A stretch of DNA of 64,000 nt from Owenia fusiformis (taxonomy: Eukaryota; Annelida; Polychaeta; Sabellida; Oweniidae), in NCBI GenBank assembly GCA_903813345.2, contig CAIIXF020000004.1, forward strand, positions 6,345,525-6,409,524. The letters are read 5' to 3'. The position numbers were made by a program, and so were the translations under genes. The first letter of the stretch is position 1. Each line of letters opens with the position of its first letter. The notes under the pieces were generated by a model. The model was not told the origin of the DNA and did not search any database. It was given only the letters and a program-made list of their open reading frames with translations. Below are positions 16,944 through 63,520 of the stretch, piece after piece.

Positions 16944-19900
16944 ATGGAGAACCTAACGAATATAAACGATCCGCAGAGGTTGTACGATGAGCTGAAAACA
17001 GATTTTGACAGTGTAAAGAAAAATTTGGATATATTCTTTCTTGTTGTTGTAGCATGCATCATATATTGTGAGTATTGTAACTATGTATTCTCTCAAGTAA
17101 ATTATCTCAATATGGTTCACAAGTGTAACAAGTGTATATATAAATTAATTAAATTCGACACCTGACGAGGAGGGGGCTCTGTGTAGTTCATCTTGCTCGA
17201 GGCAACAGAGGAACAGAGAAATAAGACGCATTCTTCTTATACATCCCGCCATTAGTTTGGCTACCTTAGCTCCCCCATTGGATTGCGCCTCTTTATGTTT
17301 GGATTTTTAGGTACATAACCTGCGATGAAAATATTTAAAACAAAGGTGGACATATAGTTTTACTTTATTTCCCATACCTCAATTTTTTCCAATTCTTTCC
17401 CTCTATTACAATAGTCGAAAATTGATGTCTTTGAAAATCGACATTCCAATGTAAACGAATGGGAAAGGCAAATCAGATTTCAGGATATCTATTCAGTAAA
17501 AAATCATCAAAAAATATTTTTATGTTGTAAATTGAATTGTCTTATTTTTTCCAGGAATATTTCTTACTTCACTTTATGAACATTAAAGTCGCATAGCTTC
17601 AAAGTCTTTTTTTTTAAATCATTTATCGCCTCCTGTGTTACTTTAAGGGGAGAGGTTTTTGAAAAACAAATTTGACTTTGACTTGAATATAATCTGGACA
17701 CATGTCAATTTTTGGTTAAATAAAGTTAGCAAATTCATTTGAATACTAAATTAATCTTTTTTTGCGAGAACTTGGATGGATGGATATTCTGCCATACGAC
17801 GTGTGGCAAACCTACCATACATTGGTTTACATGGGATCGTCGATTTTCAAAAGTAATCAAACTTGTCATCAATTTTCGACCCATTGTAAATGGTGACCAA
17901 TTTTAGAACATTTGGAGGTTTTGGAAATTATACCAATTTATATTTCCAGCCCTAAAAGTAGTTTATTCTTTACAGATTATGCAAATAAAAATTCAAACAT
18001 AAAGAAGCTTAACACGTATTCCAATGGAGAATTTAGGGTTGCCAAACTTATGGAGGGGAGTGATTTTTGTCATGTCATGTTATTTTCTTGGCATATGTTC
18101 ACCATAACCTCTAATATGCCTTTTCCAAGATTTGAAAAAAAATATTAAATGGAAACCTCGTACATAAGAAATCAAAAATGCAAAAATATTCCTTAAAGGG
18201 CTAAGAATAGATCGCTTGCGAACCAAATCTTAAAAATATATATCTGTATGTCGAAATAACACATTAACCTTATTACGTGTTTAAAGGTAAACAGAAATAA
18301 ACGAGCGTTAGTATTTTTTATAGGTAAAAGTTGAATACAAGACATTAGTGCAGCCTTCAGAGAATTACTGATGCGAGGTTAATGATAAAGTAGAGGGAAG
18401 CTTTATTTTGATAGAAAATATATTACCCGTTTATGTGACTTGTATGCACTAAACAAGTATAAGTTCAAGTGTAAGCCCATGTCCTAATGAAGACCGAAGT
18501 AGGGAAACTGAGTATTAACCTTTTTTCCTTTTTGTATATAATAATTGGATTTTATTATTACTGATGCCCTTTTAGGGCCAAACGTACATCCGATATACAA
18601 TTTTCAATAACAGTATATAGCAATAAAGTAAAGACAATAGGATTACATTCTTCAAATGACATAGAAAATGTTACTTTGATATAAGAATCCTGTCTCTACC
18701 AATCATTAGATACTTTATCATGTCAGCAGATTCTTTTAATATGATCCCCTCACTCGTCAATAGAAAAATTGTCTTTTGGTGGTCATTCATGTTTTTAAAA
18801 TTACTACACAGGTTTTCAAGTTTTTCAATATGGGATTTTCTGATAAACTCCAATTTTTTACATTTGAATAAAAAGTGTGTTTCATCTTCTATAGCCGAGT
18901 CCTTACATATTTTTTGGTATCGATATGGTGAACTGAATTCAACAATGTTTTTCTCTTTAACCAATTATTGAAAATATTCTGTAAAAAACACTTTTTAAAA
19001 AGCGGAGATATTTTCTAAATGAGGCGTAAAACTGAAAATGGTAGTTTTAATTTTTCCTTTAATAAATATACTAATTCATTCTATTTATGTGATTACTATT
19101 TTCGAAGTAACATATTTAAAGTTGTTTAAGGATTTAAGCCCTGGACTCTCAGTAAATTGTTGGCTGAATCATACCATGAAGTTGTTGTTTCCAAACCTTT
19201 ACATGACCGCGCGGCGGGAATGCAAAGTTCAGGAAACAACGACTGGGTGGAATGAAGCAGCTACAATGCATTGAGTTTTGGGCTTAAATTCTTTTCACAC
19301 ATTGCAATTGTTTCTACAAAATCATCCAAAAGGAACGAAATCACTAAAAGAACACATTTTAAATGACATTTTTTGCAAGGGTTAAGTTGGCAAGTCATCA
19401 AATCCAATGTGAAAAGTCCACCAGAATACTAGTTCAAATCTTTTGGATTGCTAATTATGGATTTATAATCAGTTATAATGTCAGAAAATAAAGACATTTT
19501 CACTGTTGTCGTCGATCAAAGTCAAGGTCACAAGAATATCGGCCATTCATTTGTGCGATATTTGCCGCGGAAATCAGCGCCGACAAATTGTTAGGAGATT
19601 TAAAAATATCAAGCTGGAACCCTGGGAGCCAAACTTCGTTGATGTTATTATCTAGAAAGATTAGAGGAAAGTTACCACGCAAAAACTAAGAGCATTAACT
19701 AATTGTTAATTTTACAGAATGAAGGCAGATGTATGCGAATATCCTACCTTATTGGCCAATATTGCATTTCAAATCCCGAGCCATCCCGTGGGGAGGCGGT
19801 TTTCTCAAACTCACTTAACATTAACATTAATTTGTTAACTGTTTTTCAGTTATGCAATGTGGATTTGCGTTACTGGAATGTGGAGCTGTAAGGAGCAAAA

Positions 19901-22900
19901 ACACAACCAACATTCTTATCAAGAATCTCTTAGATTCATGTACGTATATATTTGATTAATTTTCTCCCAATTTCAACAACATCAAAAATGTCTACTCATT
20001 CTCAAATCCCTTAGTGCCATTGATACACCCCTTGTAAACAAAAAAAGTTATGCATTTATTTTTATTGTATTTTAATTGTTTGAATTGGATATCCTGAGCG
20101 GAGAGTTAAGTTTAGTTTCACTTATTGGAAACGTATCTGGTCGTCAACAAAGGGCTGCAAAGGGCTGCAAAGAGTGTGTGAGTGTAAACTAATGCCAAAC
20201 GAGTACAAATGACTGTTAATGATGAGTGTGTGAGTGTAAAGTAATATCAAACGAGTACAAAGGGCTGTTAATGGTGAGTGTGTGAGTGTAAACTTATGTC
20301 AAACGAGTACAAAAGGCTGTTAATGATGAGTGTGTGAGTGTAAACTAATGTCAAACGAGTACAAAGGGTTGTTAATGATGAGTCAAAGAGTGTAAACTTA
20401 TGTCAAACGAGTACAAAGGGCTGTTAATGATGAGTGTTTGAATGTAAACTAATGTCAAACGAGTACAAAGGGCTGTTAATGATGAGTGTGTGAGTGTAAA
20501 CTAATGGCATACGAGTACAAAGGGCTGTTAATGATGAATGTGTGAGTGTAAACTTATGTCAAACGAGTACAAAGGGGTGTTAATGATGAGTGTTTGAATG
20601 TAAACTAATGTCAAACGAGTACAAAGGGCTGTTAATGATGAGTGTGTGAGTGTAAACTTATGTCAAATGAGTACAAAGGGCTGTTAATGATGAGTGTGTG
20701 AGTGTAAACTAATGTCAAACGATCACAAAGGGTTGTTTATGACGAGTGTTTGAGTGTAAACGAATGTCAAATTAGCACAAATGGTTGTTAATGATGAGTG
20801 TGTGAGTGTAAACTAATGTCACACGACTACAAAGGGCAGTAAATGATGAGTGTGTGAGTGCAAACTAATGTCAAACGAGTACAAATTGTTGTTTATGATG
20901 AGTGTTTGACTGTAAACTAATGTCAAACGAACAGAAAGGGTTTTTAATGATGAGTATGTGAGTGTAAGCTAATGTCACACGAGTACAAAGGATTGTTTAT
21001 GATGAGTGTTTGAGTGTAAACTAATGTAAAACGAGTACAAAGGGTTGTTAATGATGAGTGTGTGAGTGTAAACTAATGTCAAACGAGTACAAAGGGTTGT
21101 TAATGATGAGTGTGTGAGTGTAAACTAATGGCATACGAGTACAAAGGGTTGTTAATGATGAGTGTGTGAGTGTAAACTAATGTCACACGAGTACAACGGG
21201 TTGTTAATGATCAGTGTTTGAGTGTAAACTAATGTAAAACGAGTACAAAGGGCTGTTAACGATGAGTGTGTGAGTGTAAACTAATGTCAAACGAGTACAA
21301 AGGGCTGTTAATGGTGAGTGTTTGAGTGTAAACTAATGTCAAACGAGTAAAAAGGGCTGTTAATGATGAGTGTGTGAGTGTAAACTTATGTCAAACGAGT
21401 ACAAAGGGGTGTTAATGATGAGTGTTTGAATGTAAACTAATGTCAAACGAGTACAAAGGGCTGTTAATGATGAGTGTGTGAGTGTAAACTAATGTCAAAC
21501 GAGTACAAAGGGCTGTTGATGATGAGTGTGTGAGTGTAAACTAATGTCAAACGAGCACAAAGGGTTATTAATGATAAGTGTGTGAGTGTAAACTAATTAC
21601 AAAGGGCTGTTAATGATGAGTGTGTGAGTGTAAACTAATGTCAACACTACAAAGGACTGTTAATAATGAGTGGGTGAGTGTAAACTTATGTCAAACGAGT
21701 ACAAAGGGCTGTTAATGTTGAGTGTGTGAATGTAAACCAATGTCAAACGAGTACAAAAGGTTGTTAATGATGAGTGTGTGAGTGTAAACTTATGTCAAAC
21801 GAGTACAAAGGGCTGTTAACAATGTGTGTGTGAGTGTAAATTAATGTCAAACGAGTACAAAGGGCTGTTAATGGTGAGTGTAAACTTATGTCAAACAAGT
21901 ACAAAGGGTTGTTAATGATGAGTGTGAGTGTAAACTAATGTCACACGATTACAAAAGGTTGTTAATGATGAGTGTGTGAGTGTAAACTAATGTCACACGA
22001 GTACAAAGGGTTGTTTATGATGAGTGTTTGAGTGTAAACTAATGTCAAACGAGCACAAAAGGTTGTTAATGATGAGTGTGTGAGTGTAAACTAATGTCAA
22101 ACTCGTGCAAAAGGTCGTTAATGATTAGCTGGCGTGTGCAATCTAATGTCAAACGAGTGCAAATGGTTGTTTATGATGAGTCAGTGTGTGTAAACTTCTA
22201 TCAAACTTAACGAGTGCAAGTAGGGTTGTTAATGATGAGTGGGTGAATATAAATTAATGTCAAACAAGTCCAGTGGGTTGTCAATGATACTTGGGTGAGT
22301 GTAAACTAATTCCAAACGAGTAAAAAGGATCAATTATAAGTTGGTGAGTGTAAACTAATGTCACACGTCGCAAATATTTCTTTAACACAGGTATAGGTGG
22401 ACTTTCATATTGGATATTTGGATATGCATTTGCATTTGGACCGGAGGGCAACGCCTTCATCTCATGGAAGCATTTTGCCTCTGAAGGGATGGACCCCGAT
22501 GGTTACGCCCATTGGTTCTTCCATTTCGTATTTGCTGCAACCGCTGCGACGATCGTAAGTGGCGCCGTAGCAGAACGATGCGACTTCATAGCTTATTTTG
22601 CATACAGCATCGCAATTACAGGTACTGAGTTAAAACAAGAATGATTGGCAGCCAGAATGCAACATCAATATTTTCCAACAAAGCTAGCGCCATTAAAGTC
22701 TGACAAATTTTGTGGCTATAAATTTACAATTAGCGATGAGAAAGATTGAGAAATGGCGACTCTTTAAGTTTGAATTTTGTACATGGCAACGATGCCCCTA
22801 TATGGCACAATATCGGAATTGCATTCTGGGATCCAATCCTCTTTGGAGTTAAAAAACATACTAACATGGTGATATGATCTGGATAGCGCTATACGTTTTT

Positions 22901-35969: not shown

Positions 35970-36150
35970 AAATTACCTATTAAGGTAACTTTACATTACA
36001 CAAATTATCTATTCTAGAGTGTAATTTTACACGACACCGGTGCGTTCAAACACTCCAATCAATCACGTCTTCGACTATCTAATAGCTATCTCTCAGAAAT
36101 CGAGTCCCAATGATAACGAATATAAAATCGTATATTTCAGCTCTTTCACC

Positions 36151-39735: not shown

Positions 39736-39741
39736 GTTTAC

Positions 39742-40049: not shown

Positions 40050-40440
40050 AGGAATTTCTATTCAGCTTTGAAATTTCACAAGTTCTCGTTTTTGTAAAAT
40101 TTTAAGAGACTAGCACATTAAACCTTGTATTTTTTCTTCTTTTGTACAATTATGTCATTTAAATAATTTTCCATGACTTTTTAAAAAATTCTCCTTTGAT
40201 GAAATGCAACAATTCTATAGGTTTATTCGTTTGACAACCAACATTTTCATGACCAATCACAATATGTACATTGACAGGGTCATACCATAGTATGGCATTC
40301 AAAGTTTCAGACAGATTAAACCAACACTTTGTCATAAATCATTAAATTAAGTGATCTCAATTTACATGTGAATCAATGGCAGTCTGGCCCAAACAAAACA
40401 AAACAAAAAATAAACAAGGGTGACATCTATTATTTCAGCT
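40050..40440. repeat. Dispersed repeat, second copy of 28930-29420
   Basis: Shares collinear blocks with 28930-29420 (for example CAACCAACATTTTCATGACC and ATTGACAGGGTCAT). It lies in CBM14-c intron 1. Confidence 0.6.
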
Positions 40441-40878
40441 TGTTCAGTCATACCCCTTATTGAAATTGAAATATTTGGGTTATTGCTTGAAACTATTAAT
40501 GTCGTGTCTCGTTCCCTCCGTCTCTTTATTCGTTATGCAAATAGGAAAATATGCAAGGTATTATCACATTTCAATTGATTGAATATACAGGGAGTGCCAA
40601 AAAATTGTGCAAATTTTTTAGACGTCTAGAAAATATATTGAAATGCCTGTACAGGCGAATGCCGCGAAGAACCTAAATTGCATCCGATAGATTTGAACTC
40701 AGGACACTCTAAATATTGAAAAGTTTCAGATTCAGTCCATCATAAGTTAAAATATTGCAGGACTATAAGCCTCTGTGTGATTGATTACGTCAAATCGAAG
40801 GATGAGCCACATTTACGTACATATTTAAAAATACTGGTTGTGTTTGTTATTGTCTATTCTTTTTAGAAGTTGTTATAC

Positions 40879-41727
40879 CACCCTATGCAGACAGAGCCTG
40901 TGGGAAATATTGGGTGCGGCGCAAATGAGCGGAGGGTGCGGAGCTAACGGTCATTTTTGAATTTAAAATTGGGATATTTCTGAAACTAAGCCGTTTTGGG
41001 ACTTCAAATATGCCAAGATATGTGTACTTGACACCAAGATCAATAAAATTGTGAAAATAGTAGTGCAATTCATTTAATAGCGACGCAGTATGCCTTAAAC
41101 ATTTCCCAGACCTATATATTTTGAGACTATCCTTTTAATACTGCGTCCCCAGCATTCATAAAAAATGGTGTTCAAGATACACTACCCATGCAAATTATTT
41201 TTGCATCTTGGAAGCCAGACAGTATCTGTGTGCTTTTATAAAAATTCGGAAATGTTCTTCAGATATGAGCCCCCTCTAAATATTGGGTGCGGAGCAGCTC
41301 CATAAACGTACCTCCACACCCAATATTTAGAGGGGGCTCATATCTGAAAAACATTCCGAATTTTTATAAAATCACACAGATACTGCCTGGCTTCGAAGAT
41401 GCAAAAATAATTTGTATTGATAGTGTACCTTGAACACCATTTTTTATGAATGCTGGGGACTCAGTATTAAAAGGATAATTTCAAAATATATAGGTCTGGG
41501 AAAGGTTTAAGGCACACTGCGTCGCCATAGAATGAACTGCGCTACTATTTTCACAATTGTATTGATATTTGGTGTCAAATACACATATCTTGGTATATTT
41601 GAAGTCCCAAAACGGCTTAGTTTCAGAAATATCCCAAAATAAAATTCAAAAATGACCGTTAGCTCCGCACCCTCCGCTCATTTGCTCCGCACCCAATATT
41701 TCCCACAGGCTCTGTCTGCATAGGGTG
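40879..41727. mobile_element. 849 bp near-perfect palindromic (foldback) element
   Basis: Begins CACCCTATGCAGACAGAGCC and ends GGCTCTGTCTGCATAGGGTG. Both arms, about 410 bp each, are inverse copies with few differences, meeting near 41300 at a spacer of about 20 bp. A 5 bp target duplication, TATAC, flanks it (40874-40878 and 41728-41732). No coding capacity; non-autonomous. It lies in CBM14-c intron 1. Confidence 0.85.
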
Positions 41728-42349
41728 TATACATATTATCAATGATGCTGGAAGTATCACTTGATAACGATACTACTTCTTTATTCATTATGTTTTTAAA
41801 GGTAAGCATCCACGATGATTCTCTTTGTTGTTTGATAGGCTAGATGCACCAGTGTTTCCGATCGCGATAACATGTGATTGTAAAAATGAGTAGCTTGTTT
41901 GAATATATCTAGTGGATATTTCCGAAGCTCTTAATAGATCGATTGCATCTTTGCTTTTTTAGAATATTTACAAAAAATAACATCATTAGCTTCCCAGATA
42001 AGATGGAAATCGTCTTACGTGTAAACCATGCATTCATTTAAATCTTTTTTAGAAAAGTAATTTGACATGCCTCATACTACGGATCCATGTAGAATTATTG
42101 GAACTACTGATTGTTCAAAAATGTTATCCTTATTGAGAGTTTTAAACAAGTATTACCAAATGACCTTTGCTTATCACGCTTGGTCATACAGATAGTTCTG
42201 GGATCAAATAGACGTCCCTGAACGATTAATGGTCATTTGGGTATTTTATTTGACCGTGCGCGTCTTCGTCCCATCCTTTTCAAAAATATTTTTCTGTATA
42301 TTTGTTCTTTTATCAAATATGTACAGTATGGTCAATATTACTATTGCCA

Positions 42350-42520
42350 AACATCTGATAAATCTGCATAGTAACCACATCTGCATAGTAACCACATCTG
42401 ATAAGTCTGCATAGTAACCCCATCTGATAAATCTGCATAGTAACCACATCTGCATAGTAACCACATCTGCATAGTAACCACATCTGCATAGTAACCACAT
42501 CTGCATAGTAACCACATCTT
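42350..42520. repeat. 17 bp tandem array next to CBM14-c splice acceptor
   Basis: About nine units of CATCTGCATAGTAACCA, some replaced by CATCTGATAAATCTGCATAG variants. It ends about 10 bp before the acceptor ATGCTTTAG at 42530, so it makes up most of the region where a branch point would lie. Confidence 0.85.
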
Positions 42521-42540
42521 CATGCTTTAGCCCTTCCACT

Positions 42541-45500
42541 ATGTTGCCTTTGGTTCTCCTCTTCGCCGCCGCTTTGGCCAGTGGTCCTCCTGTCGTCCTT
42601 GACGACCCAACACTATGTAATCCAAGTGGTTACATCGCTGGTGTAGATCTTGGATTGGATTGCTGCACTTTCGTTGTATGCGACAACGCTAGGCTAAACA
42701 AGACTGGCTTCCAGGGAAAATGCATGGGAGGAACCGCATGGAACCAAGCTCTCCTGGTATGCGATGATGTAAAATACGTTCCTGATTGCGACGTAACAAC
42801 ATGTGACGGTACTTACAATTTGTATTTTGTAATAATTAATAAGGAAGTTAAGCTAAAGCTTTTGTAAGATAACGTATACGTGAACGTGTATAAGTAAGGT
42901 CCTCTGGGGATAAGTTGTCCATTTGTAATATTTATTTACCCGATTGAGATGTAAGGTATAAGAAAAATAGTATGTATGTCTCTGGATATATTATAAATCC
43001 ATTATATTACATCATGTTTTACTATTATGTTCACAAGTTCTCCAAAACGTGTAGCTTAACTTAACAATTAATCCAACAGCCCGAACAGGTTTATCAAATT
43101 TTCGCTTTTTACTGAAAATGATTCATAAACCGTTTTTTTTATCATATAAGAGTCTTCAAAAGCAATATTAATACGTCGTTGAATACGATATGCTTTCATT
43201 GTGATGTCATGTTATTTACATTTGAGGATTGGCTCCCAGATTGCAACATCGATATTCTGTCCCATATATGGGCATGTCGTGATACAAAATTCAAATTCAA
43301 ACAGCCGCCATTTTGTTCACTCAAACATTTGAATCGTGAATTTTGGTCTTATTTCCTCACGAAAAATTTCACAACTCACAAGGAATGATCGAGATATTGG
43401 TTCAAATATTGTGAACTGTTTATTTTGAATTTATAGTTGGTTTTAATTTCAGAAAATAACGACATTTGACGTTTTCATTGTTGGAATATATCGAGTTCCG
43501 ATCCAGGGAGCCAATCCTCCTTGCATTTGACTGGCATCCATTTTATCAACTTGTAGCAATCTACTAAATCGTCAAGAGTGTAGCCCAGGTATATAACCAA
43601 CTTGTTGAAATGACAGCGTTGGCATTTTTAAAAATTCGCATTTTTACTACGCGAGTGACGTCATGTGCTTTTGACTGGGCATTTTATTATCAACATTGTG
43701 TTAATTATATAGATGTCACTACGGAAACGCATATATATTTTTAAAGATAAATGTTTCATTTATTTGATAAGTTGTCATCATTAAGTGCAATACCAGGAAT
43801 ACGGTACCAACTGTATATAAGCATCGCATTATTATTCCTAAACAGGCGAGAAAAATGGCTCCGCAAAATGTTTGAGATTATGTTCGTAGTTACGAAAATG
43901 ATGACGTAGCATAAAAGTCTCCTTATCTGAGATTGGCCTGGTCTATTACGTCATATATTGGAATCTGCCTCATTCATTGGCGTTTGCCTCATCTATTACA
44001 GTTTACCTCGCCTACTAGAGTTTGCCTCATCAATTCAATGTTTCAATTCTTCCAATAATGAACAAGTATCAGATATTTCAAATCCTTAACTAACAATGAG
44101 TTAGGCAAAACAATTTATTCTAGTTTGTTAAATCATTATAAACGAGTAGAGACAAGTTTGGTGCTCGTAGTTGTTGTAAACAAATACAATACACACTAAT
44201 ACAGTGTGTCTCAAAAAAATGTTACACTTACAAAAAGTTCAATATCTTTCATAATTTTGACTTTTCTCCTAAAATATACTTTGGATACCAAAAGAGAAAT
44301 CTTTCTCGAATAATTTGATACCATCAGATTCAAAATCTGTCCTTGATTGGCTTCCCAGGACAGCTTTTAGTGTCCCATGGTAACATCTGACTTGCGCCAA
44401 CTTCTAAGTGATTGGATGGACTAAATGACAAAAGAGGAACAGTTTCTTTAACATTTAATTTTCTTCTGAGTAGAAGTCATTCTGTAATTTTCCTATTTGT
44501 CTTACTTAGTATGACCACTGGCCATGGGTCTATCCGCATAAACATGTGGTCCCCTCAACATGTTCTCCAAAGCAAATCTGAGGTACCCTTGCCCATGCGC
44601 ACATGCATTGCAATATCACACTGATTGCATCAATTATTCTTGCAGAAGTTCATTAAGGTCAGTTTCTGATGCTGTAAAGCGCTTTCAGAGGCCCTTCAAA
44701 AAATCAAGGGTGTAAAGTGGGATGACACTTGGAGCCAATCCATTGGGTAATTCAATGCTATCTTCTGATTTCCAAAGAGTTCTACCAAACGATCTGCTAC
44801 AGGCCTTTGCACCATCCTGTTGCCATCATACGTAACAACATTGAACACTATGACAATGAAATCTTGTATTTCTATCCAGGAAAGAAACAACTGGATCATT
44901 GATCAAATCAAGATATCACTGTCCACAGCATTCACACCAAAAAAGAATTGATCACTACATGTCCAACCACTGAGAAGTTGGCGCAAATCAGATTTCACAT
45001 GCGTCTGTAAAATCTGTCCTGTACAGCCAATCATGGACAGATTTTGAATCTGATGGTGTGGATTTATTCGAGAAAGACTGGTCTTTTGGTATCTAAGTAT
45101 ATTTTAGGGATAAAGGAAAAATCATGAAAGATATTGAACTTTTTGTAAGTGTAACATTTTTTTGAGACACACTGTATACCCAACACCTAGAAATGCAAAA
45201 GATACTTTGTTTGTCTAATTGTATTGTTTATAGTATATTTTTGAAAGTGCCTTACTAACATCTAACATTCAACCGATAAACCATTAATAAGGAACAGACA
45301 AATAAAAACAAATACATAATCATTACTAATAAGCCAAATGGGTTGCTCATGAACACCAAATGCAAGGTATAGTAGAGTGCAATAGTTTGAATCGTGGTGT
45401 CATCACTGCTGAATCACGAGCTTATATAAAAAAGGTATAGATATATAAGGGTTATGTACTGGGAGGTTTTGGATATGGGGTTTATCCAGAGGGAGATATG

Positions 45501-50946: not shown

Positions 50947-52473
50947 TCGTATTGTGATGTATTGTTCACTGATTTAAATATACTTTCTAATGCGATACAA
51001 TTGTGTTTGTTAATATCGTAAAGGTGTTTTGTTCAATGTAGAATGTTATCCTCTAGCCCACACGAGTGCATTACTTTACTTATTAATTAAGTATATTTTG
51101 TATCGACTTTATCCTTACCTAGTTATTTGGTTTTTACCACACTTTTACTATGATAAGTATGTAAATACAATTTATTTAATTTTTGTTCACATCATACATG
51201 TAATTGCAACTATTATTTAATCATAATTATTAATCAAACATATCGTAAACTGCGAGTATGAACCTTAGAATGTATACGTTTACGTTTGCGGTTCACGTCA
51301 ACATAACCGCCTTGCTTAACCTCTCCAGCGTCAGATGCCCTAAACTTCTAGATTATCTATTCGATGAAGAGAGAAATATTTTAATTGCATTTTCTTTTAA
51401 TAATGCAAACTAATCATAGAAAATAGAATTAAAAGGTATAATTTGTTACTCCGTAAGTGAAACGGACTTGTTTGATCGTAGCTTCGTGTCCTGTAAACAA
51501 ATGATAACTAGATGCAATTTCATTGTTCGTCGAACCATTGTCTGGAATGTTGGATGCTTTCCGTATGGCCTTGGGCACTCTTCAAGAAATCAAAAACAAT
51601 TCCTTTAAAGATATCTTTGAATATAAAAAATATATTAAATGCTTTGGAAAGTATTTGCAAAAATATTCTATATAAGGAAAAGAGTTTTATTTAAAAATCA
51701 AAATCAATAATGGTGTTGAACTGAACTGCACTAATTTTATTATATATGTGTATTGTTAGAAATGTAACTTATGTAAAATGTGTCTCATAAACCCAGGAAG
51801 GGCTGGCTATCTTAGATAGGTGACACTTAAATAAATGAATGAATAAATGAATAAATAAATAAACAAATAAATAAATAAATAAATACCTCCTTCTAACTGT
51901 TTTATGAGTTAATCGGTCCTTTGGATTTGGCATGTTTTGTGTTGCGTGAGGTAAAAATATCTAAATTAATTTGGATCATTTTAGAACTCACGTAGTCTTT
52001 AGCGTGTATTAAAACATGCCCTTTTACAACATAAAACACGTGTGGGTCTCATGTATATTCCAGTGCACTATTTGTGTTCACGTTAAACGACTGCGTGTCA
52101 TTTTATGACAGACACAATCGTATGGTTCTTACCCTAATTTGATACATTTTTCGTGATAGTTTTTTCCATTGATTGTTGACTTCCAAAAGCATTCCCGCGA
52201 CCTTGGGCATTTTATCAATGAACTTCGAAGTAAAACCCTGATGTAGAAACCTTTTCTCGATAAAATGCCGAGTGCACGACTTAAACTCATGGTCATAGTT
52301 CTGGGAGTTAGATAAAACAGTGCTAAAATTAAACTGTGAATTAGAATCAAGACGGTGTTACAGATAACATTGAAATAATTCTATCAAAGTCTCAGATCTA
52401 AGATCTTCATCATATCAAATAATTATTAAGCGGGTCATCTTGGATATTTAGAGGCAAAAGCGCAAAGGATATA
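50947..52473. other. Intergenic, CBM14-c to AMT2
   Basis: Holds a probable LINE 3' end with an AAAT tail (about 51500-51886). No host exon seen. Confidence 0.5.
51500..51886 (+). mobile_element. Probable LINE 3' end with (AAAT)n tail
   Basis: GGGCTGGCTATCTTAGATAG, then GTGACACTTAAATAAATGAA, runs into AAAT/GAAT tetranucleotides (51831-51886). A conserved 3' end followed by a short tetranucleotide repeat is typical of non-LTR retrotransposons. No reverse transcriptase is preserved. Confidence 0.5.
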
Positions 52474-52651
52474 ATGGCACCGAGTATTGAATCATCGTTA
52501 CCAGTTCCGAGACCTATTTCGTCGATGACACCCTGTATAGAAAAGACGGAACAACAGATGTCAGGCGTTGCTGAAATCAAACACAATATTGATATACTTA
52601 ACGAAAATGCAGACGTGTTCTTCATGGTTACAATGTCAATCATCATATACC
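52474..52651 (+). CDS. AMT: AMT2 candidate first exon 1a
   Basis: ATG at 52474, 59 codons plus one base, donor C|GTAAGT. It ends NADVFFMVTMSIIIY, the first half of AMT TM1. Joined to the exon at 63431 the split codon becomes Leu (C+TT), where the other first exons give Phe. Its N-terminal extension is the longest of the four (about 45 residues, with prolines and a cysteine). It could also be a relic of a separate duplicate, but no exon 2 lies between it and 55823. Confidence 0.75.
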
Positions 52652-55600
52652 GTAAGTGCTATTTGGATTGATTCAAATATAAAAAGTTGGGCAAGGGGTA
52701 ACTCTCCCATCGAACCAAGGGCCTGCTTCTGCATGGCGTAATTGCTGATTGGTCGATCATGTTAGGAAAAAAGGGGAAATGCAAAATACACAAAATGTCA
52801 AAACGTGCTACAGGTTACAAAATATTAGTCTTGGCATAATTTAGCAATAATACAAAATATTACATTCTTTTGCGGCGAATATATATATGATATAATAAGA
52901 TATAATCTTTCAGTATAATTCTCGCAGTCCAGGCGTTCTTACCTTACTTAAGAAATAAGAGGGGGAGAAACCCCAGGGTTCAAAGATGACATACGCTTAC
53001 AATGTAAATCTGTATTGAGATGACATCGTCACTGATTGGTTTAGCGAGTCGATCGTTGATTGGTTTAAAACTAGGTCAATTTGAAAACTTTGAAAACCAA
53101 GATGGAGGGTAAACGAATATACGTACTTCCGGGAAAGGAGGTGCGCGAAGGAGGAAATCGTATGACATCAATTGAATCATGGGGTTTTCCCTCCTCTTTT
53201 AAGAAATATACAAAACCGGACGGTGTATTAGAACGTTTAATACGCCTATCTCAAATGCGTTCGTCATTGCTTTCATATGACATGTGTTTCTTGACTGAGT
53301 GTACATTATCTAAAATTACCGAGTTTTTCATCAATATTTTATGTTCGTGAATCGTTATCCCGGACTTTTCTTGGGCAGTTCATCTTGGATCTTAATATCC
53401 GTTCGTATATGGTATGACTCCCCCATCGTTTTGCCGTTTTACTACTTGCCACAATCAACCTCACTGCCAGCATACCAAACCAGGCCCATTTCCCATCAAA
53501 CTACACCCAACTACTATAAGGTGGATATCCTTCAAAAATCAAGTTGGCATGGTTACCAAAGCCTAATAGTTACCATGGCAACCGTGGAAATTGGGTAAAA
53601 AATGAGAGCAAAAAGCACCCAAACCCACCATAATGGCACTAATTTATAAAACATTTCTAGACATACAAATTTTCTTAAACTTTGATATCATCTAGGACAC
53701 AAAAATGTCAAACATTGGGGGTAGGTTTACCACTTCGATTTTTCTAGGCTTGGTCAAAGCAAAACTATGAAAAAAGCACTCATTTTCACCTTTGAATTAC
53801 CTTTTATCGCCCAAATGGCTAAATCTTTCAAGGTCAAGGGTCGCCATACTGAAAGTAAAAGTACGGAGATAAATCTGCTCTTCAGACAATGTTTCATAGG
53901 TTTTCTTTACCACGGAAGAAAGATCTTTTCCATGAGATAATATACGTGAAAGAGGAACTTTGTCTTTAAATGTCATCAAAACTGCCAAGTGAAAATGCCT
54001 TTTCGCACTATTTTTGGTGTAATACATGTACTACCTATTACAATAAAAGTTGCGGGCAACTCACCAGTGCATAAACTACCAGGTTATATTTGAGACATGT
54101 CAATGTAATATTTGTTCATTTTTTATCATTTATTTAGACGCGCACTTTTAAAAGAGTGGCCCGCGTTCATACATTGAATGAAAGAAACATCGAATTACAC
54201 GTGCATTCATTGAATCATTAAAACCTATAATTCAGTAAGGTGTTATTTCAAATGCACTTGAAGATTTAATTTTGATTAAATACCTGCTGGTTTATAAGAT
54301 TTAAGTGAGATAATTTCAATATTAATTTCATTGCCATCACCACCCTTATTGAGGATTTTAATATCCGGCGAAATGGTGAACTGGAAATGTACACAAACAA
54401 CATCATAGAATGCTGAGGTAATCACAAAATCAAGCAACAGTTGCCTCAAATCGTCTTTGGTTTTGCGAAGACTTAAATCGAGAGAATATATTCATCTCGT
54501 GGCAACTCTATAATCGTTGTAATTTACTGAATTTTCAGAAAGTATCCTTTTTATAAATTCCTCGTTTTTCTTTTATTTTTCAAGGAAATGTCAAAATGCA
54601 TAAACTTATTTTTTCCAATCGATCTTAGCCCTATTCTACCTTCGACGTGTATATATATTAACACACGCTGATATACATATTTCGAACAGCGAAATTTCTT
54701 ATGATAATCCATTGACAGTCTTGTAGATGAGGGGGGGGTGGTTGGCTAGCCCTTTCGTGCTATGAAATCCGGGTTACCTGAAATAGGATTAAATGGCAAG
54801 AAATAGGCTGTTTACAATACACCCTCTATATGTACGCTTAGAAGCTTGACGTTCCTATTGGCAAGCACTCCAAATGCTATTTATGTTTAAATCAAAATTC
54901 TACTTCCAGACATTCCACATATTCATACTTTTTGAAAAGGCTTTAAAATGCGATCACACATAGAGCCTCTGTTCGATTAATAATTTTAAGGGGCTGTTCA
55001 GTTCCTTGTTGCTAAAATAGTTTTACAAACACGATGTATTTTACCCTATGCTGACCACTGATATCGGTTAATGACCAATTTGAAATTGTTCAAACTTTGT
55101 ATAAATAAAGCTGCTTAGTTAATTTGGAAACATAAAACGATGGTACACAAAACCCCATGAGAACTTTAAATAGTCTTTATAGGGCTCCCTTAGAGGGGCA
55201 ATAGGGCTATTTTAGTCAATATGTCAGGTTTAGCGAATTGAAGGCTGTCAAATGTTTTTTATTCATCATCAGTCCTGACGCTTATTTGATAATTCAAACT
55301 AACAATTACCAAAATTATAAACATGCTATAACATGTCTGAAGTTCATGTGAGTAAGTAATGCCTGGGTCATATTAAGTAATGCCTTGGTCACATTTGCTC
55401 CGATTTTCACTACGGCGCCCGTCATATAATTTGATTATACGAATAATTGACAGATTGGACGCACTGCCTGCTTTGCCTTTAAAGACTTGTTAAACAGGAC
55501 AGTGCTCCAAATTTTCAATTGAAAATATTCATTTGCAAAATTTGTTTGGGTCTTAATACCTTAAATTCATATTTGGTCAAACCGAAAGCGGTCGAGTTAC

Positions 55601-55822
55601 CTTGTCGCATATCCCTTCGGGAGCCCCCTTACTAATATAAGGACCTAATAGCCTTGAACAAAAACATCGAATTTCAGTACATAAACTACATCATAGCGGG
55701 CGGATAATCGCTATTGGTACACAGCTACCTCAGTCCATCGAACTTGATTTTTCCTTGGATATCTACTCGAGAAATTCTTCAGCATTACATCTAGTAGAGT
55801 TTATAGACGTTTGGATTCGAAT

Positions 55823-55946
55823 ATGGCAACGAATGCAACTATGGCAGATTTGGCGAAACTTATCTCTAAACTTGAAACAAAAACAACGTATATTAGCCAG
55901 AATAACGACGTTTTCTTCCTTGTCACGATGAGCATTATCATTTACT
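55823..55946 (+). CDS. AMT: AMT2 candidate first exon 1b
   Basis: ATG at 55823, 41 codons plus one base, donor T|GTAAGT. It reads MATNATMADLAKLISKLETK, then NNDVFFLVTMSIIIY. The extracellular N-terminus has an NAT glycosylation motif. The phase matches exon 2 at 63431 (T+TT = Phe). Confidence 0.78.
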
Positions 55947-57243
55947 GTAAGTATCAATATAATGTTTTTTTATATATATTCCTGATTATCCCTAGATCAC
56001 ATATTTGATCCACGGCAACAATACAGCGGTTTCAGAGAAATATGCAGCATGAAACATAGGGATAAGCATTACGATGTAGATTTTCACTATGTGAAGCTAC
56101 GGCCGCCGTACGCCCATCGAGGAACAAATATGACCGATGTGTTTGCAGGCAGGAGAGATTGTATGTAACAGGGCCCATCATATTTCCCTGACACAGCCAA
56201 GGATAAGCGACATTACAGTTTTTTCTAAAATGAGGTATCATAATACCATGAAATACCATTCGGTCAAAAATCCATCTTGATACGCACGCCCTTTTGCCTT
56301 GAAGTTATAAAAGCAGCAGATGATAAATATATGTTTTGATTGAAACTACGCCGGTTATACATAATTACCATAGCGTGACCAATACATGACAATAACAGAC
56401 GTGGGCATTTCTGATGGGTTTTCTAGCCCGAGGCGTGCATGCACTGATTACTCTTGAGGGAAGCGTAAAGGGCTTCATTCGTGCAAAACATTGACTGGTT
56501 TAACACTCTTGTAGCCTCCCCCTCCAAAAATCTGACTTCTGATTACCAAATATTTTGAAGGGGTGTAGATTAAAATGCCCATTCATACCTAATGTATCTT
56601 AATCTAGTAGAAATTAATGACCGTATGAAAATGTGTATCGGTGTCCTCAGTCCAAGGATATTTCAAATATTTTTACCGGTAGCAGCAAATGTTGTATTAT
56701 AAAACGATAGTACAGGACACTTAAAAAATCTTTCAACACAAGTTGAACTTATAAGTACTTTACAAACATCACATGCTTGATGGATAAAAACACTGTAGTC
56801 CTTCATGAATCGGATATAAATGTTAAAACGTCGGCTAGCATTACGAGTTGCGTCTGTAAATTTGAAAGGCTTGTTGTCATTTTATTGACGAGGACTAAAT
56901 TGTATTGTTTCATATTACCTTATTGACTGAAAAAAATCGAATTTGAATTCAGGTCAATCTGTCATCTTTAAGAATAACGACAAACTCCTTATTTGATGTT
57001 GCAGCACACAACACGTGATTTTCAGATATTTTGACATTACTGAATTCGCCTCAGGTTTTGAAGGGAGACACGTGGGCTACCTACATGTAGACCCGTCCAT
57101 GATGTATTGACAAACTATAAATAACCAGCAAAGCGAAACGTAGACATTTATAAACATCAAATTTGATATAATTACAAGACATACACCACGCGGTGACTCA
57201 ATCAGTTAAAGTGCAGCTATAACATATATTGGATTAATACAAA

Positions 57244-57376
57244 ATGGCATCGAATGACACGAATGTTACCATGGCGGATCTGGAAACAATGCTCAAAGAT
57301 CTAGATAAACGGACAAGTTACATGAACGAAAATAATAACGTTTTCTTCCTCGCTACTATGAGCATTATCATATACT
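57244..57376 (+). CDS. AMT: AMT2 candidate first exon 1c
   Basis: ATG at 57244, 44 codons plus one base, donor T|GTAAGT. It reads MASNDTNVTMADLETMLKDL, then NNNVFFLATMSIIIY. Similar to 1b (M-A-x-N, TMADL, SIIIY). The core aspartate of DVFF is Asn here. NDT and NVT motifs are present. Confidence 0.78.
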
Positions 57377-59239
57377 GTAAGTATTTCGAATCAGATTTTC
57401 TGCAGGGTTTTGTGTTACTTCAGTTTTCAAATGTCGCCCTTTGTACTCTCTTTATGCCAAATACCAACAATAAGTGCACTGGTATACAATATAATTACGA
57501 TCATTACGGGGTTTGATGTAATGGTATTTAATGAAATTTGTATATTAGTAATACTGTACATGATTTGTGTATTTAATGCTTTATCGATGCTCCTGTGTAA
57601 CAGTATCTAAATCTGCGTAAACTCATACCTTTCGCCACCAAATAAGAACCAAATCTGAATATTTTCATATATCTCACCCGGGGTATCTCGTTCTCACCGT
57701 GGTAAAAGCTAGAACAAGAGGAGTCGATGACAAGTTAAACCAGAAGCAACTTTGACTTTGAGCGAATGTTTCCACATATCCAAATGCCATACCATAACAA
57801 TTCATAATACCTGATTATATTATAAGTTCATTAATTCCAGTAAGTTAAATATACTATGGACCATTCCGTCTGCACGTGTTAAGTGAATGTACATTCAATG
57901 TGAACTGCGTGCGAATCACGCTTTACTTAAAAAATTATGTTTACGCAAGAGCCTCTTTATTATGTGTATTGATAACTGTTTAACCATACGCTTTTACCCG
58001 AAACTATACTTAGACTGTGAGGAAATTCACGGGACACATGCAGAGCTATTTAAATTAAAGCTATTAAAGCTAGAATCAACAGTTATACTGCTAGCAAAAT
58101 TCATCTTTGTGCGCTCAGTCATCACTGTGGCCGACGGGAAGATAGGGAGTATCACGATCCATGCAAATTAATGATTACTAAAGCAATGTACGTGTCATAT
58201 ACCATATAAAAATAAGATCTTGAATTAAACTAGATCTATGACATGAGTACGTATTTATGGTGCATGGTGAAGCTATTTTCGACTTGAAAATAATATTTAG
58301 AAGTGTGCAAAGCTGGTATATTATGATTAGTCATGGACCTATAGAATAGCCAATGATTGATTGAATGCTGAAATGTAAACATTAATTACATAAATTGCAT
58401 GGCCATGGGATTGCAATCATATGTCTAAGTCTAAGATTGGCATAGTTCCCGCCCTCCGGTAAACCTTTGGAATCATGAAAGGGTATTATATACTTAAATT
58501 TAACTTTATTATCAGTATTGCATTTTAATTTCAATTTTAAAAAACAGAAAATTGGATACAAATCTTACAAAAAGCCTAACAAATTGATAAAACTGATTTC
58601 TAAAATACATGTACTGTATGCTCACAATTTGATGCGCTTAGTGACCATGATAGTTTACCACTCACTGTATAGTATAAATATCAGAATATGTGTAGAAAGG
58701 CGTAAAATTGCATGTCTAAGGTCACTTGTTAAACATCTACTTAAACCACTAGGTTGATTGCATTTCTATACATCAAACAAACACCCATCTTGCCGGCATT
58801 TATCAAAATGATAAGGTTTGAAACACTTGTGAGCTAGACTGTATAGATCAGTTTATGGGGCCCTGAACCGGACCCAATATAGGCACCTGGGTTAGATGGA
58901 GTGGTTGAAAGTACTGTATAAAGCGCATTCTTTTATTTATCATGTTTTATTCGATACAATATTATGTATTAAAAGGAAATTTCCTAAAGGCAACTTTGTT
59001 TAACTTCATTAGCCGCAGGGTGACTTAAGCGTTATGTTTGATATCGTTTATATTTCAATGTTGGCCTCTAAAATGTCCTCCTCCAAGCGCAGGACTCCAA
59101 ATCAAGAAATCAAAGAGGTACGGATTCTGTATATTATCTGTTTTGGAGAATGCTGAAATGTTTACTTCAAGGTTGATATAGAGAAACATGATTGCAAGTG
59201 TTATCCCCAAAATCGGTGTGATAAACATTTCATCGACTA

Positions 59240-59310
59240 CCCTTTGCATTTGTTTGACTTCACTTCTTAAAAGAGAGCTTTAACTTGACTCTGCACGCAG
59301 GGTATTCATC
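59240..59310. repeat. ~70 bp repeat, first copy (see 61774)
   Basis: TACCCTTTGCA...GACTTCACTTCTTAAAAGAG...GACTCTGCACGCAGGGTA. The outer ends are inverted (TACCCT and AGGGTA). A second copy is at 61774-61848, so two copies flank exon 1d. Confidence 0.6.
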
Positions 59311-59749
59311 GACTTAAAATGATGAAGAACTTTAACTGGGACAATTTTCGAAACGACCATATATTTGAAAAGAGGTGTGTCCGCTAGATCCACACCAGGT
59401 CAGCCAACGATTTGTCTTTAAGTTCAAGTCAAACTATATTTTGCCGTTTTCTATTTGCCGCCCGTCAACAAGGGATTAATTCGCAAACACATACTATTTG
59501 AACACTGAAAGTAATTTTGGAACAATCGAGGAAATAGCATTGCTTACTTTAACTTGAAAATGTCGTGTAAAAAGCAAATATAATTTTTTAGTTTCATTCT
59601 GTATATTTTGCTCACGTTAACTCATAAGCACATTATCTCATAGTTGTCAGTAACACTACTCGAAACATTAACATAAATAATTGGTCTTTCGAGTTTTGGT
59701 TTTAATATAACCTGTGATCTATTCCGAGTTTTGCGTAACTTAGGTTTAC

Positions 59750-59893
59750 AAAGGTCCATGGGCAGTTTGGCAAGTGATATTAGACAGACATATCTTTCAC
59801 CATGCATGAGTACTTTCTTGGCATAAATACAGTGGTACTCATGGTGAAAGATATGACCGTCTAAAATCACTTGCCAAACTGCACATGGACCTT
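59750..59893. repeat. 144 bp hairpin between AMT2 exons 1c and 1d
   Basis: AAAGGTCCATGGGCAGTTTG, then GCAAGTGATATTAGACAGAC, pairs with GTCTAAAATCACTTGCCAAA, then CTGCACATGGACCTTT. ATATCTTTCACCATG pairs with CATGGTGAAAGATAT. The arms are about 60 bp with few mismatches. Confidence 0.7.
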
Positions 59894-61280
59894 TCGCCCT
59901 TATGTTATCTACAAGGCAAATACCAAATGAGGGTACTGCTAAACTAGTTTCCATAACAACGAGGGTTAATAATAACCCTTCAATGCAAAAAGTGAATAGC
60001 GTTCCCTCAACGACTCTATTACACGTGGGATTATATAAATATGTACACTGCACACTGCGTCCATTGAGTCATTTAACAAGGAAAGCAAACATTAAAGCAA
60101 CCACTCAGAGCAAACTTTTCCATCCTATTTATTATCAATTATATAACCTCGTTGACACGACCCCCAGGTGAAAGTCAAGGAAATCCCTTGCATGAATTTT
60201 TTTTGCGATCCCAAGGAATAAATGTCCGTCACAGTTTAGTCGTAGACCAATGGCACTGATTGAATAAAACATCGTTTGATTTGTATAAACCATGTTTAGA
60301 AGCATAGGGAGTATCTTAGTCTCATATTCAAACGATACTCGTCTCAATGTCCACCTTGGACAACCCTAACCCTCTTGTCCCTGACTTTTTCAGATTTCAA
60401 GTGAACCGAAAAGTAAAGCAATAAACATGCACGGCGATTAATTGACTCTTGTCAACAAGAGTTTCGAATTTAAGCTAATGCATTTATAAAATATGTTTAT
60501 TTCATCAAAATATCGGGGCCTAAGTTCATGGTCGGAGATACTACGCTATTACGTCATTTACGCGTATGCATCGAGGCCATGTTGATACACCCGTATTCGT
60601 ATGGTCTCAAAAGACGCAGAGCATTGAACCAAGCAACAATCGACACGCCTTGGGTGTTTTCACAACTATCAAAACATCTCTATAAACTATTAATAACTGC
60701 AAAATCAGGGATTACAATCCCCCGATAAATAGTTCACGCTTATTGGAAAATGTTATTGTTTTAAACATTATCCTTTTTGAAATATCTCTTCATAAAACTG
60801 ATGATTTTTTATAAGTTTGTTCCATCCATTCCCGATGGTTTTCTGTTAAATGGATAATAAAATATGAACCAAAAAGGTGCGAAATTTGCGTTGTTATGGA
60901 CTCGAGATTAATGCAAGGGATCGGGGGGTTGGTGTTTGCATTTGGGTATGAATAGTGGTGTTCGAGGCCCCTTTGTCAAATGAGCTCAGAGCATCGAGTT
61001 TCACAGAGCTTTGGACGATATATATCTTCACGATATCAGAGAAATTAGAAAATAGTTATAAAAAAAGCATTGTTGAATAGTAGCTTAATCTAATCAGTGA
61101 ATGAGACCAAGAATAGAAAGGAGAAGTATTTTGACAACCTTTTGAACATTTCTTAAATAAAAATAGATAGAAAAAAGTTATTGAAATACGCAAAGTAAAA
61201 GTATAGATTTGATAAAAAGTGTTCACAGCGGAGAGGCTAACGTATCCTCCGGACGTAGCTGAATAGACGACACTTTAAAA

Positions 61281-63520
61281 ATGGCGAATTTAACAATAGC
61301 AGAGAGCGTCGCGCAGTTAGAACAGAAGATGGCCATAATGAATTCAAACTCCGACGTGTTCTTTCTGGTTACAATGTCCATTGTGATATATTGTAAGTTT
61401 TTTTTATTTACCCAAGTCACATCGAGTGTATTTAGAGTCGTATTTATTTTTAAACATGTTGTAGCTGAATAGCGAAAGTGTATACGTTTTCAAATAAGAT
61501 AAAAAACATATTTTGCTAATCGATGGATTGCAAAAGACTGGCAATATTAAGTGAACACATTTTGCGAAACATGATTTAATCGAGATCATATAAAAATATT
61601 TTCATGGAGTTCTGCGTAATTTATGATAAATGACGTAAATGTGATTTACTTTGTATGGGATTATATCAACGGTCTTGATTGAGGTTTAGAGTTAATCATA
61701 TATTCTGACGACTTAGCAGTTTCTGTTTGAAATTTTGTAAAACTATCATATAAGAAATGAATACCTCTTTCATACCCTTTGCATGCGTTCGACTTCACTT
61801 CTTAGAAGAGAGCTTCGTATTCAGACTCTGCGCGCAGGGTACCTCTTTCAATCTTGTTGTATCCTCTTTTGGGCAACCTAGACATAGCTATAATTGAGAG
61901 CACTGAGAAATAAATTTGCAAAGTTAAGGATGTCATGATTCATCCGGTTAAAAATTTAAAACGAAAAGACACATTCCTTAAAGAAAAGTAATGTGCTGAA
62001 CACACTACTACTACATTATATATCTTGAGGAATCAAATACACCGCCGAATGTAGCATTTAGCAATAACAAAATACATCGACTCGTCGGGTTTTTCGGTTT
62101 AAAAATTAGAGAGTGCAAATAGATTCATGTGATAAACTTTTAATCATATCAACATCTTGTCTTATTTTTTGGCTTCTAAAACGTAAAATATTTAAATACA
62201 GTCTTGGTTTAAACCCTTACATAGCACCTCGTTTTTTTATATTTTTTAATTTGATATTATGCCAAATGTCAAAAAAGAAAACCACCAGCCGTCGGTCAGA
62301 CTATTCAAAATTCAGCCTTGGTTCTAAATGTGTTATCATTTAATACATCCTTCACCCATTTGAGGTTATCCAGGCCAGATAAAATTTTGGGGTGTGTGTC
62401 TCATATAAAACATGTGCACAAATAATTTGATTATGTCATCGAATGAAAAGGTGCCTTATTCATATATCTCCTCGGGTTTTATACACAGATAGTGTAGGCA
62501 TGTCATATTAAGTACATGACAAAACTACAAACAAACTAAATTTGGCGATTCCCTATCAATAAATAAACGCAAGGAGCTCACTTGTCCCACGACCTCATAG
62601 TTACGGCGACAGCGGCAAGCTTAGCGCGTTCAGTGTTCTCTCAAGACACCCCCGACCAACTCAACAACCCCAAAAAGAGTATTATGCCATTTAACAATAT
62701 TGCGATGAAATAATTCGGTGAAATATCGATTCAGTGAAACATCGCTTAGCTTATCGTGTTCAGTGTTCTCTCAAGACACCCCCAACCAACTCAACAACCC
62801 CATAAAGATTATTATGCCATTTAACAATATTGCGATGAAATAATTCGGTGAAATATCGATTCAGTGAAACATCGCTTAGCTTATCGTGTTCAGTGTTCTC
62901 TCAAGACACCCCCAACCAACTCAACAACCCCAAAAAGATTATTATGCCATTTAGCAATATTGCGATGAAATAATTCGGTGAAATATCGATTCGGTGAAAC
63001 ATCGCGCAAAGAGCGCAACTCTCATACACTGTATGCTTAGCCTGTTTGCAAAACATATATGTTTCTAGTCGTTAATTAAACATATTTACATTTACCATCT
63101 ACGTACAGATTCCATTCATAAAGATTAAATGACATGAGGATTAAATGAACACTCGTTAGAATGTACGAACAAGTTCACATTTTGTTTGCTAGCTTATGTC
63201 GAACAAGAATTATTTGACCACACTTTAAAAATTGAAACCAGTGTAGTCTTTATAAAGTATTCGTTATATGTTTAAGGTATAATTTAATCAGCCAAGAAAC
63301 CAGAAAATATATAGGCTATTTAATACAATCGAAAAAAATGTCGGAGTTTGAGCTGATTCACCGCCTTAATTAAGCGTCTCTCTCTTCATTGCGTTTTCAT
63401 GTTTTTTATTTGATGAACTTTTATTTCCAGTTATGCAATGTGGATTTGCATTCCTTGAATGTGGAGCCGTTAGAAGCAAGAATACGACCAACATACTCAT
63501 CAAAAATATCCTAGATTCTT
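61281..63520 (+). CDS. AMT: AMT2: first exon 1d and common exon 2 (gene continues past window)
   Basis: Exon 1d, 61281-61392, reads MANLTIAESVAQLEQKMAIM, then NSDVFFLVTMSIVIY, with donor T|GTAAGT. Exon 2, 63431-63520 (acceptor TTATTTCCAG, donor T|GTAAGT), encodes [18 protein letters not shown], then [12 protein letters not shown]. It is 90 nt long like AMT1 exon 2 and nearly identical in protein. The two halves reconstitute AMT transmembrane helix 1 and the conserved RSKNTTN stretch. The gene is a second AMT/MEP ammonium transporter; all later exons lie beyond 64000. Exon 1d is the closest first exon, 2.0 kb from exon 2. Upstream exons 1a-1c are phase-compatible alternatives. Confidence 0.85.
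61774..61848. repeat. ~70 bp repeat, second copy
   Basis: TACCCTTTGCATGCGTTCGA, then CTTCACTTCTTAGAAGAGAG, ending GACTCTGCGCGCAGGGTA. Closely similar to 59240-59310. Confidence 0.6.
62553..62690 (-). repeat. Degenerate SINE related to 13651-13768
   Basis: On the minus strand GTTGTTGAGTTGGTCGGGGG and the end CTCCTTGCGTTTATTTATTG match the A-box region and tail of the SINE at 13651-13768. The B box is degraded. Its head end runs into the 130 bp tandem array. Confidence 0.45.
62621..63005. repeat. 130 bp tandem repeat, about 3 copies
   Basis: Units start with CAGTGTTCTCTCAAGACACC at 62631, 62761 and 62891. Each continues CCAACTCAACAACCCC, ATTATGCCATTT, GCGATGAAATAATTCGGTGA. Very low divergence means recent amplification. 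It lies in the AMT2 intron between exons 1d and 2. Confidence 0.9.

What the first reader, a model, noticed from the sequence alone, without database searches (positions are those of the whole stretch)
52474..63520. Four tandem alternative first exons feeding one ammonium-transporter exon 2
Exons at 52474, 55823, 57244 and 61281 each start with ATG, carry a divergent N-terminus, converge on DVFF(L/M)VTMSI(I/V)IY (NVFFLATMSIIIY in 1c), and stop one base into the codon completed by exon 2 at 63431. No other copy of exon 2 (ATGCAATGTGGATTTG) is seen between them. This resembles a promoter-choice array giving one transporter four extracellular N-termini and four versions of half of TM1. I know of no such arrangement in AMT genes. 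Alternatively the first three are remnants of collapsed tandem duplicates.
Basis: partly seen in the sequence, partly recalled or inferred. Interest (0 to 1): 0.85.

Follow-up and report, generated by a model that had tools for sequence, protein, structure and literature searches.

The report
Four alternative starts, one ammonium transporter
In an unnamed animal's genome, a gene for an ammonium transporter has four old, still intact beginnings in a row but only one shared remainder, so the animal can probably make four versions of the protein by choosing where to start reading.

Summary
Four ATG-started exons (52474, 55823, 57244, 61281) each end in half of TM1, in the same phase and at a GTAAGT donor. 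Only one compatible exon 2 (63431) was found downstream. The gene continues past the window; a hand-spliced model beginning with 1d matches PF00909 positions 2-399 of 399. The first exons are not decaying remnants: synonymous differences are near saturation while the TM1 half is conserved (pS 0.52-0.90, pN 0.06-0.18; 6 of 6 pairs), and neutral simulation rejects the pattern for 6 of 6 pairs. Similarity ends within about 10 nt of the exons. Each start codon follows an unusually long ATG-free stretch (142-443 nt; P about 4e-5), and no acceptor-like site in those stretches exceeds background. This favours four true first exons with separate start sites. The closest known architecture is the tandem variable-first-exon cluster (protocadherins, UGT1, chelicerate sDscam); no AMT example appeared in the searches made. 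No RNA, no related genome and no species name were available. The four tails differ in length, glycosylation sequons and one cysteine, suggesting isoform-specific trimer assembly or surface handling (inferred).

The parts
52474..52651 (+). first exon 1a of gene B (59 codons + 1 base; longest tail, no N-glycosylation sequon, Cys21)
55823..55946 (+). first exon 1b of gene B (41 codons + 1 base; sequon at N4)
57244..57376 (+). first exon 1c of gene B (44 codons + 1 base; sequons at N4 and N7)
61281..61392 (+). first exon 1d of gene B (37 codons + 1 base; sequon at N3)
63431..63520 (+). exon 2 of gene B, the shared acceptor exon (second half of TM1 onward)
52289..52473 (+). 185-nt stretch before 1a, from the nearest upstream ATG; candidate 5' leader
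55380..55822 (+). 443-nt stretch before 1b, from the nearest upstream ATG; candidate 5' leader
57102..57243 (+). 142-nt stretch before 1c, from the nearest upstream ATG; candidate 5' leader, holds TATAAA (chance level)
61101..61280 (+). 180-nt stretch before 1d, from the nearest upstream ATG; candidate 5' leader
16944..17067 (+). first exon of the neighbouring tandem AMT gene A, the only one of its kind found for that gene; comparison, same phase and exon boundary
19850..19938 (+). exon 2 of gene A, 27 of 29 residues identical to gene B exon 2; comparison

Best explanation
This is one animal AMT-type ammonium transporter gene (gene B) with four tandem, anciently duplicated first exons, each with its own transcription start. 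The chosen start decides the N-terminus. The first exons have donors but no recognisable acceptors, so a first exon lying inside a longer pre-mRNA is passed over and the cap-proximal one joins exon 2 at 63431. The result is four transporters that differ in the N-terminal tail (24-46 residues, outside the cell by AMT topology) and in a few residues of the first half of TM1, with an identical pore body. Shown here: exon structure, phase, a single compatible acceptor exon, open frames, purifying selection, ATG-depleted upstream stretches. Inferred: separate promoters, actual splicing, tissue- or stage-specific use, and an effect on glycosylation or trimer assembly.
For: Exact anatomy, with 0 chance sites in 30 simulated sequences. 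Over the last 13 codons pS 0.52-0.90 against pN 0.06-0.18 in 6 of 6 pairs; neutral simulation P<=0.033 for 6 of 6 pairs, and P<=0.0113 for 6 of 6 pairs over 19 codons (pairs share sequences and are not independent). Third-position excess over the full 1b/1c alignment (8, 9, 19 differences at positions 1, 2, 3 in 39 codons). 4 of 4 donors GTAAGT. Nearest upstream ATG 185, 443, 142, 180 nt away against a median gap of 33 nt (P about 4e-5). Best acceptor in each stretch scores 1.1-4.2, reached by 43-98% of random windows. The 1d model covers PF00909 2-399 of 399, E=2.3e-111; 1a, 1b and 1c versions, tested through exon 3, match 2-123. No other exon 2 of this family lies downstream within the stretches held.
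Against: No RNA reads, start-site data or related genomes. No promoter motif sets the stretches apart: only 1c of the four has TATAAA, and 25% of random 150-nt windows have a TATAWA. The acceptor model is small (14 sites); in leave-one-out 2 of 14 real acceptors score below the best leader site, so a weak acceptor is not excluded. Selection shows that the exons are used, not which exon they join.
Confidence: 0.77

Rival explanations
1. Shared leader: one distant promoter and non-coding exon, with the four coding exons as mutually exclusive second exons. The same four proteins result, but by splicing choice.
For: Start sites are unknown; no promoter motif was found; the acceptor model is weak, with 2 of 14 real acceptors scoring below 4.2 in leave-one-out.
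Against: No above-background acceptor in the ATG-free stretch of any of the four exons, and those stretches look like contiguous 5' UTRs.
Confidence: 0.1
2. Collapsed tandem duplicates: 1a-1c are leftovers of whole AMT gene copies whose other exons are gone, now unused; only 1d works.
For: AMT genes are tandem here (genes A and B), so whole-gene duplication is plausible as history.
Against: All three are open, have ATG and GTAAGT donor, and show strong constraint despite near-saturated synonymous divergence. Remnants of later exons were not convincing: lowest E 0.033-0.046 (three minus-strand hits) against 0.098 in one reversed control, in a search with gaps.
Confidence: 0.08
3. 1a-1c start other transcripts, joining exons that are not AMT-like, or serve as short stand-alone products.
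For: Splicing partners are untested.
Against: Each ends inside a membrane helix at the boundary and phase of the AMT exon 1/exon 2 junction. Three open frames from 52-63.4 kb had no Pfam match.
Confidence: 0.04
4. Assembly artefact or chance resemblance.
For: None found; the assembly itself could not be checked against reads.
Against: Flanks share no detectable sequence, so these are not duplicated assembly copies; 0 chance sites in 30 simulations; no N in the stretches held.
Confidence: 0.01

Closest known systems
Vertebrate tandem multiple-variable-first-exon clusters: UGT1, GCNT2, protocadherins (PMC1885805 abstract; PMC4835542 passages)
   Same: Tandem homologous first exons and one constant set of 3' exons; in protocadherins each first exon has its own promoter.
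   Different: There the variable exons encode large domains. Here each encodes a 24-46 residue tail plus half a membrane helix, in an ammonium transporter of an apparent protostome. Separate promoters are not demonstrated here.
Chelicerate sDscam with tandemly arrayed 5' cassettes (PMC4835542, passages)
   Same: Invertebrate tandem 5' cassettes feeding one constant exon, each cassette preceded by a promoter.
   Different: Cassettes there generally have two or four exons encoding Ig domains, and promoter activity was assayed. Here each cassette is one short exon and expression is untested.
AMT/Mep ammonium transporters (PF00909; AmtB, plant AMT1, animal AMT)
   Same: The encoded protein is an AMT by profile and by solved relatives.
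   Different: Four N-termini for one body. The two other genome members with the same exon 1/exon 2 split (gene A, contig 11) show one first exon each in the 94-kb and 20-kb stretches scanned.

Membership tests
AMT-type ammonium transporter (PF00909) | full-length match to the family profile | tested here: met
   E=2.3e-111, positions 2-399 of 399, hand-spliced 1d model; 1a, 1b, 1c versions through exon 3 match 2-123
AMT-type ammonium transporter (PF00909) | relatedness to solved AMT structures | tested here: met
   28 distinct chain sequences at E<=0.001, best 8qj3 (E=1.1e-55)
AMT-type ammonium transporter (PF00909) | ammonium transport activity | not testable with these tools
   needs expression and a transport assay
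Tandem variable-first-exon cluster (Pcdh/UGT1/sDscam kind) | two or more homologous tandem first exons with ATG and compatible donor | tested here: met
Tandem variable-first-exon cluster (Pcdh/UGT1/sDscam kind) | a single constant set of downstream exons | tested here: met
   remnant search had gaps
Tandem variable-first-exon cluster (Pcdh/UGT1/sDscam kind) | variable exons kept by selection | tested here: met
   comparison within one genome only
Tandem variable-first-exon cluster (Pcdh/UGT1/sDscam kind) | a separate promoter before each variable exon | tested here: inconclusive
   ATG-depleted stretches and no above-background acceptor favour it; promoter motifs uninformative
Tandem variable-first-exon cluster (Pcdh/UGT1/sDscam kind) | transcripts joining each variable exon to the constant exon | not testable with these tools

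The most novel reading that the evidence does not exclude
The four first exons form a switch for AMT trimer identity. Promoter choice swaps the extracellular tail (short tails with N-glycosylation sequons in 1b, 1c and 1d; a long sequon-free tail with a cysteine in 1a) and part of the first half of TM1, so that cells build trimers of differing stability, partner choice or surface targeting around one pore body. It would be the first protocadherin-like first-exon array in a small-solute channel known to me.
Probability: 0.25. Interest if true: 0.75.

Novelty: new member of a known kind. Interest (0 to 1): 0.52.

Why it matters
If transcripts confirm it, an ammonium transporter would join the few gene types that diversify one protein through a tandem first-exon array, and in an apparent lophotrochozoan rather than a vertebrate or chelicerate. 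Because the variable part is short and the body constant, it is a natural chimera set that would show directly what an AMT N-terminus does: trimer assembly, glycosylation, targeting or affinity. That question has been raised for plant AMTs (Graff et al. 2011, seen only as cited in a passage of PMC4440354). It also warns annotators that AMT genes counted by first exon would be overcounted.

Tried and rejected
Chance resemblance: 0 sites in 30 simulated 94-kb sequences.

Promoter motifs: among the four, only 1c has TATAAA within 150 nt; gene A exon 1 also has one; 25% of random 150-nt windows hold a TATAWA. No claim made.

Acceptor model: first scored on its own 14 training sites, which looked cleaner than it is; leave-one-out scores are 1.4-12.0, so lack of acceptors is moderate evidence only.

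Amphipathic or coiled-coil tail: hydrophobic moment beats shuffles at p<0.05 in 1 of 6 first exons (gene A, p=0.009; 1b p=0.051; combined Fisher p=0.017, mostly gene A). Not used.

Remnant search: the gene B exon 4 query was out of frame (gene A exon 4 stood in) and the short FNGGS exon (window 25364 / 72526) was not queried. Lowest E 0.033-0.046 for three minus-strand hits, against 0.098 in one reversed control; I judged these chance.

Organism: a COX1 family search found nothing. A homeodomain search gave a run of Hox hits on contig 1; of the six loci read, one has a Lox5-like KLTGP tail and two have UbdA-like tails (meaning of the motifs recalled), which points to a lophotrochozoan. Size and Hox on contig 1 would fit Owenia fusiformis (505.8 Mb, Hox cluster on chromosome 1; PMC9977687, passages), but this was not tested.

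Literature: ten library searches ran. One search listed three papers holding both 'ammonium transporter' and 'alternative first exon'; passages of two show no link between the terms, and the third, on ankyrin-G, was not opened. Of the rest only listings and the passages named in this report were seen.
Full report
What was checked. The window is G000:C4:6345525-6409524 in a genome of 498 Mb and 525 contigs. Each first exon is open from an ATG, is 1 mod 3 long and is followed by GTAAGT; exon 2 (63431-63520) begins with the two bases that complete the split codon, CTT for 1a and TTT for 1b, 1c and 1d. A two-strand scan of 94 kb (window plus 10 kb upstream and 20 kb downstream) for phase-1 donors preceded by at least 6 of 13 residues of DVFFLVTMSIIIY gave five sites: these four and the first exon of a neighbouring AMT gene. 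Thirty simulated sequences gave none.

The gene. Two AMT genes stand in tandem on the + strand: gene A (exon 1 at 16944-17067, exon 2 at 19850-19938, later exons to about 28 kb) and gene B, the finding, whose later exons lie beyond the window up to about window coordinate 80,000. A gene B protein was spliced by hand from aligned exons, some junctions judged by eye. Beginning with 1d it covers PF00909 positions 2-399 of 399; versions beginning with 1a, 1b or 1c, tested through exon 3, match positions 2-123. Its best solved relatives are AMTs (28 distinct chain sequences, best 8qj3). A third gene with the same exon 1/exon 2 split lies on contig 11, and two contig-3 genes carry the equivalent of exon 2 inside long exons. 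The intron that splits TM1 is thus shared by three genes here, and what is special to gene B is having four copies of what precedes it.

Are 1a-1c alive? Over the 13 codons before the donor, synonymous differences per site among the four are 0.52-0.90 and nonsynonymous 0.06-0.18, in 6 of 6 pairs. If the differences had arisen without constraint, so few amino-acid changes and no stop would be expected with P<=0.033 for each of 6 pairs, and P<=0.0113 over 19 codons (000 simulations each). The pairs share sequences, and the shorter stretch was chosen because it is conserved. In the full 1b/1c alignment third positions differ about twice as often as first or second (8, 9, 19 in 39 codons). With 1.2 kb upstream and 1.5 kb downstream compared, similarity ends within about 10 nt of the exons (the one long 1b-1c match is the stretch their windows share). 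The copies are therefore old and have been kept as coding sequence. The other gene B first exons are 50-57% identical to 1d, against 31% for gene A and 38% for contig 11, so they most likely multiplied within the gene B lineage.

What can they join? Each ends inside a membrane helix in a phase that an AMT exon 2 completes. No second exon 2 was found between them. Genome-wide there are three strong copies, and the only one downstream of the array on its contig is 63431. Genome searches with each first exon found the array, gene A exon 1 once (with 1b, E=4.41) and two weak stop-containing matches on contigs 6 and 8; they missed the contig-11 first exon, so they are not exhaustive. Searches for remnants of later AMT exons between 28.3 and 63.4 kb gave nothing convincing: lowest E 0.033-0.046, three minus-strand hits, against 0.098 in one reversed control, with two exons not properly queried. 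Ten of 51 open frames of at least 75 residues in that stretch were given to Pfam. Two carry CBM_14 domains (36.0-36.5 and 42.5-42.9 kb), one has a match below its family cut-off (47.9-48.4 kb), and the three from 52-63.4 kb have none.

Promoter choice or splicing choice? The nearest ATG upstream of each start codon is 185, 443, 142 and 180 nt away. Neighbouring ATGs in 30-62 kb are a median of 33 nt apart (675 gaps), and four random gaps add up to as much with P about 4e-5. Of four control triplets none shows such gaps in all four stretches. Gene A and contig-11 first exons show shorter distances, 94 and 81 nt. Freedom from upstream ATGs is what a messenger's own 5' UTR tends to show, so each exon probably begins its own transcript. 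Acceptor-like sites in these stretches score no better than background (43-98% of random windows do as well), but the model is small and 2 of 14 real sites score below the best leader site in leave-one-out. Promoter motifs were uninformative. I therefore favour four start sites, at about 0.77, over four exclusive second exons behind a shared leader, at about 0.1.

How it would work. As in protocadherins and sDscam, transcription from one start would place that first exon next to the cap; first exons further downstream lack acceptors and are passed over, and the cap-proximal donor joins exon 2. This step is inferred. In AMT/Mep proteins the N-terminus faces outward in an 11-helix topology (PMC10433425, passages). 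The tails before the TM1 half are 46, 28, 31 and 24 residues long. N-glycosylation sequons lie within the first nine residues of 1b, 1c and 1d, and of the gene A and contig-11 first exons; 1a has none and alone in the array has a cysteine, Cys21. Shuffles of the same residues give a sequon in 15-41% of cases for those five, so this is suggestive only. In tomato AMTs the N-terminus is reported to affect trimer stability (Graff et al. 2011, as cited in a passage of PMC4440354). An effect on trimer assembly or surface handling is my leading functional guess; it is untested.

Known or new? The architecture is that of the tandem variable-first-exon clusters (UGT1, GCNT2, protocadherins: PMC1885805, abstract; sDscam: PMC4835542, passages). 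None of the listings showed an AMT gene with such an array; the library lacks most subscription papers. I file it as a new member of a known kind in an unexpected gene family, with the separate-promoter criterion inconclusive and the transcript criterion untestable here.

Limits. No RNA, no related animal genome and no species name were available. The Hox tails point to a lophotrochozoan (meaning of the motifs recalled).

Noticed in passing
L002:850-3756 (C4:6420374-6423280; about 74.85-77.76 kb in window numbering): In gene B the acceptor and first part of a late exon (GLAWNLAGLVSIAVWSLGC...) stand in 31 tandem 93-bp copies. 28 of 31 acceptors score at least 7.3 with a model that includes the array's own last acceptor; reading on from each of the 30 upstream acceptors meets a stop within 18-118 codons, and the last copy runs into the true exon. 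It resembles the 'mirage' minisatellites of amphioxus genes (PMC3087553, passages; 6 and 3 units in BflGb6), here in an apparent protostome and much larger.
   Followed up: partly
window 27698-28107: Gene A has a similar structure: 3.7 tandem 111-bp units holding the acceptor and start of its late exon [19 protein letters not shown].
   Followed up: partly
window 20172-22367: A 52-bp unit repeated about 43 times fills the end of gene A intron 2 and stops 23 nt before exon 3 at 22391.
   Followed up: no
window 62618-63005: Three 130-bp tandem repeats (96% match) in gene B intron 1, between exon 1d and exon 2.
   Followed up: no
window 36025-42864: Two + strand open frames with chitin-binding CBM_14 domains between the two AMT genes, probably exons of another gene.
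   Followed up: no
window 59741-59910: An imperfect inverted repeat seen by eye between exons 1c and 1d (longest exact arm 17 nt), possibly a small transposable element.
   Followed up: partly
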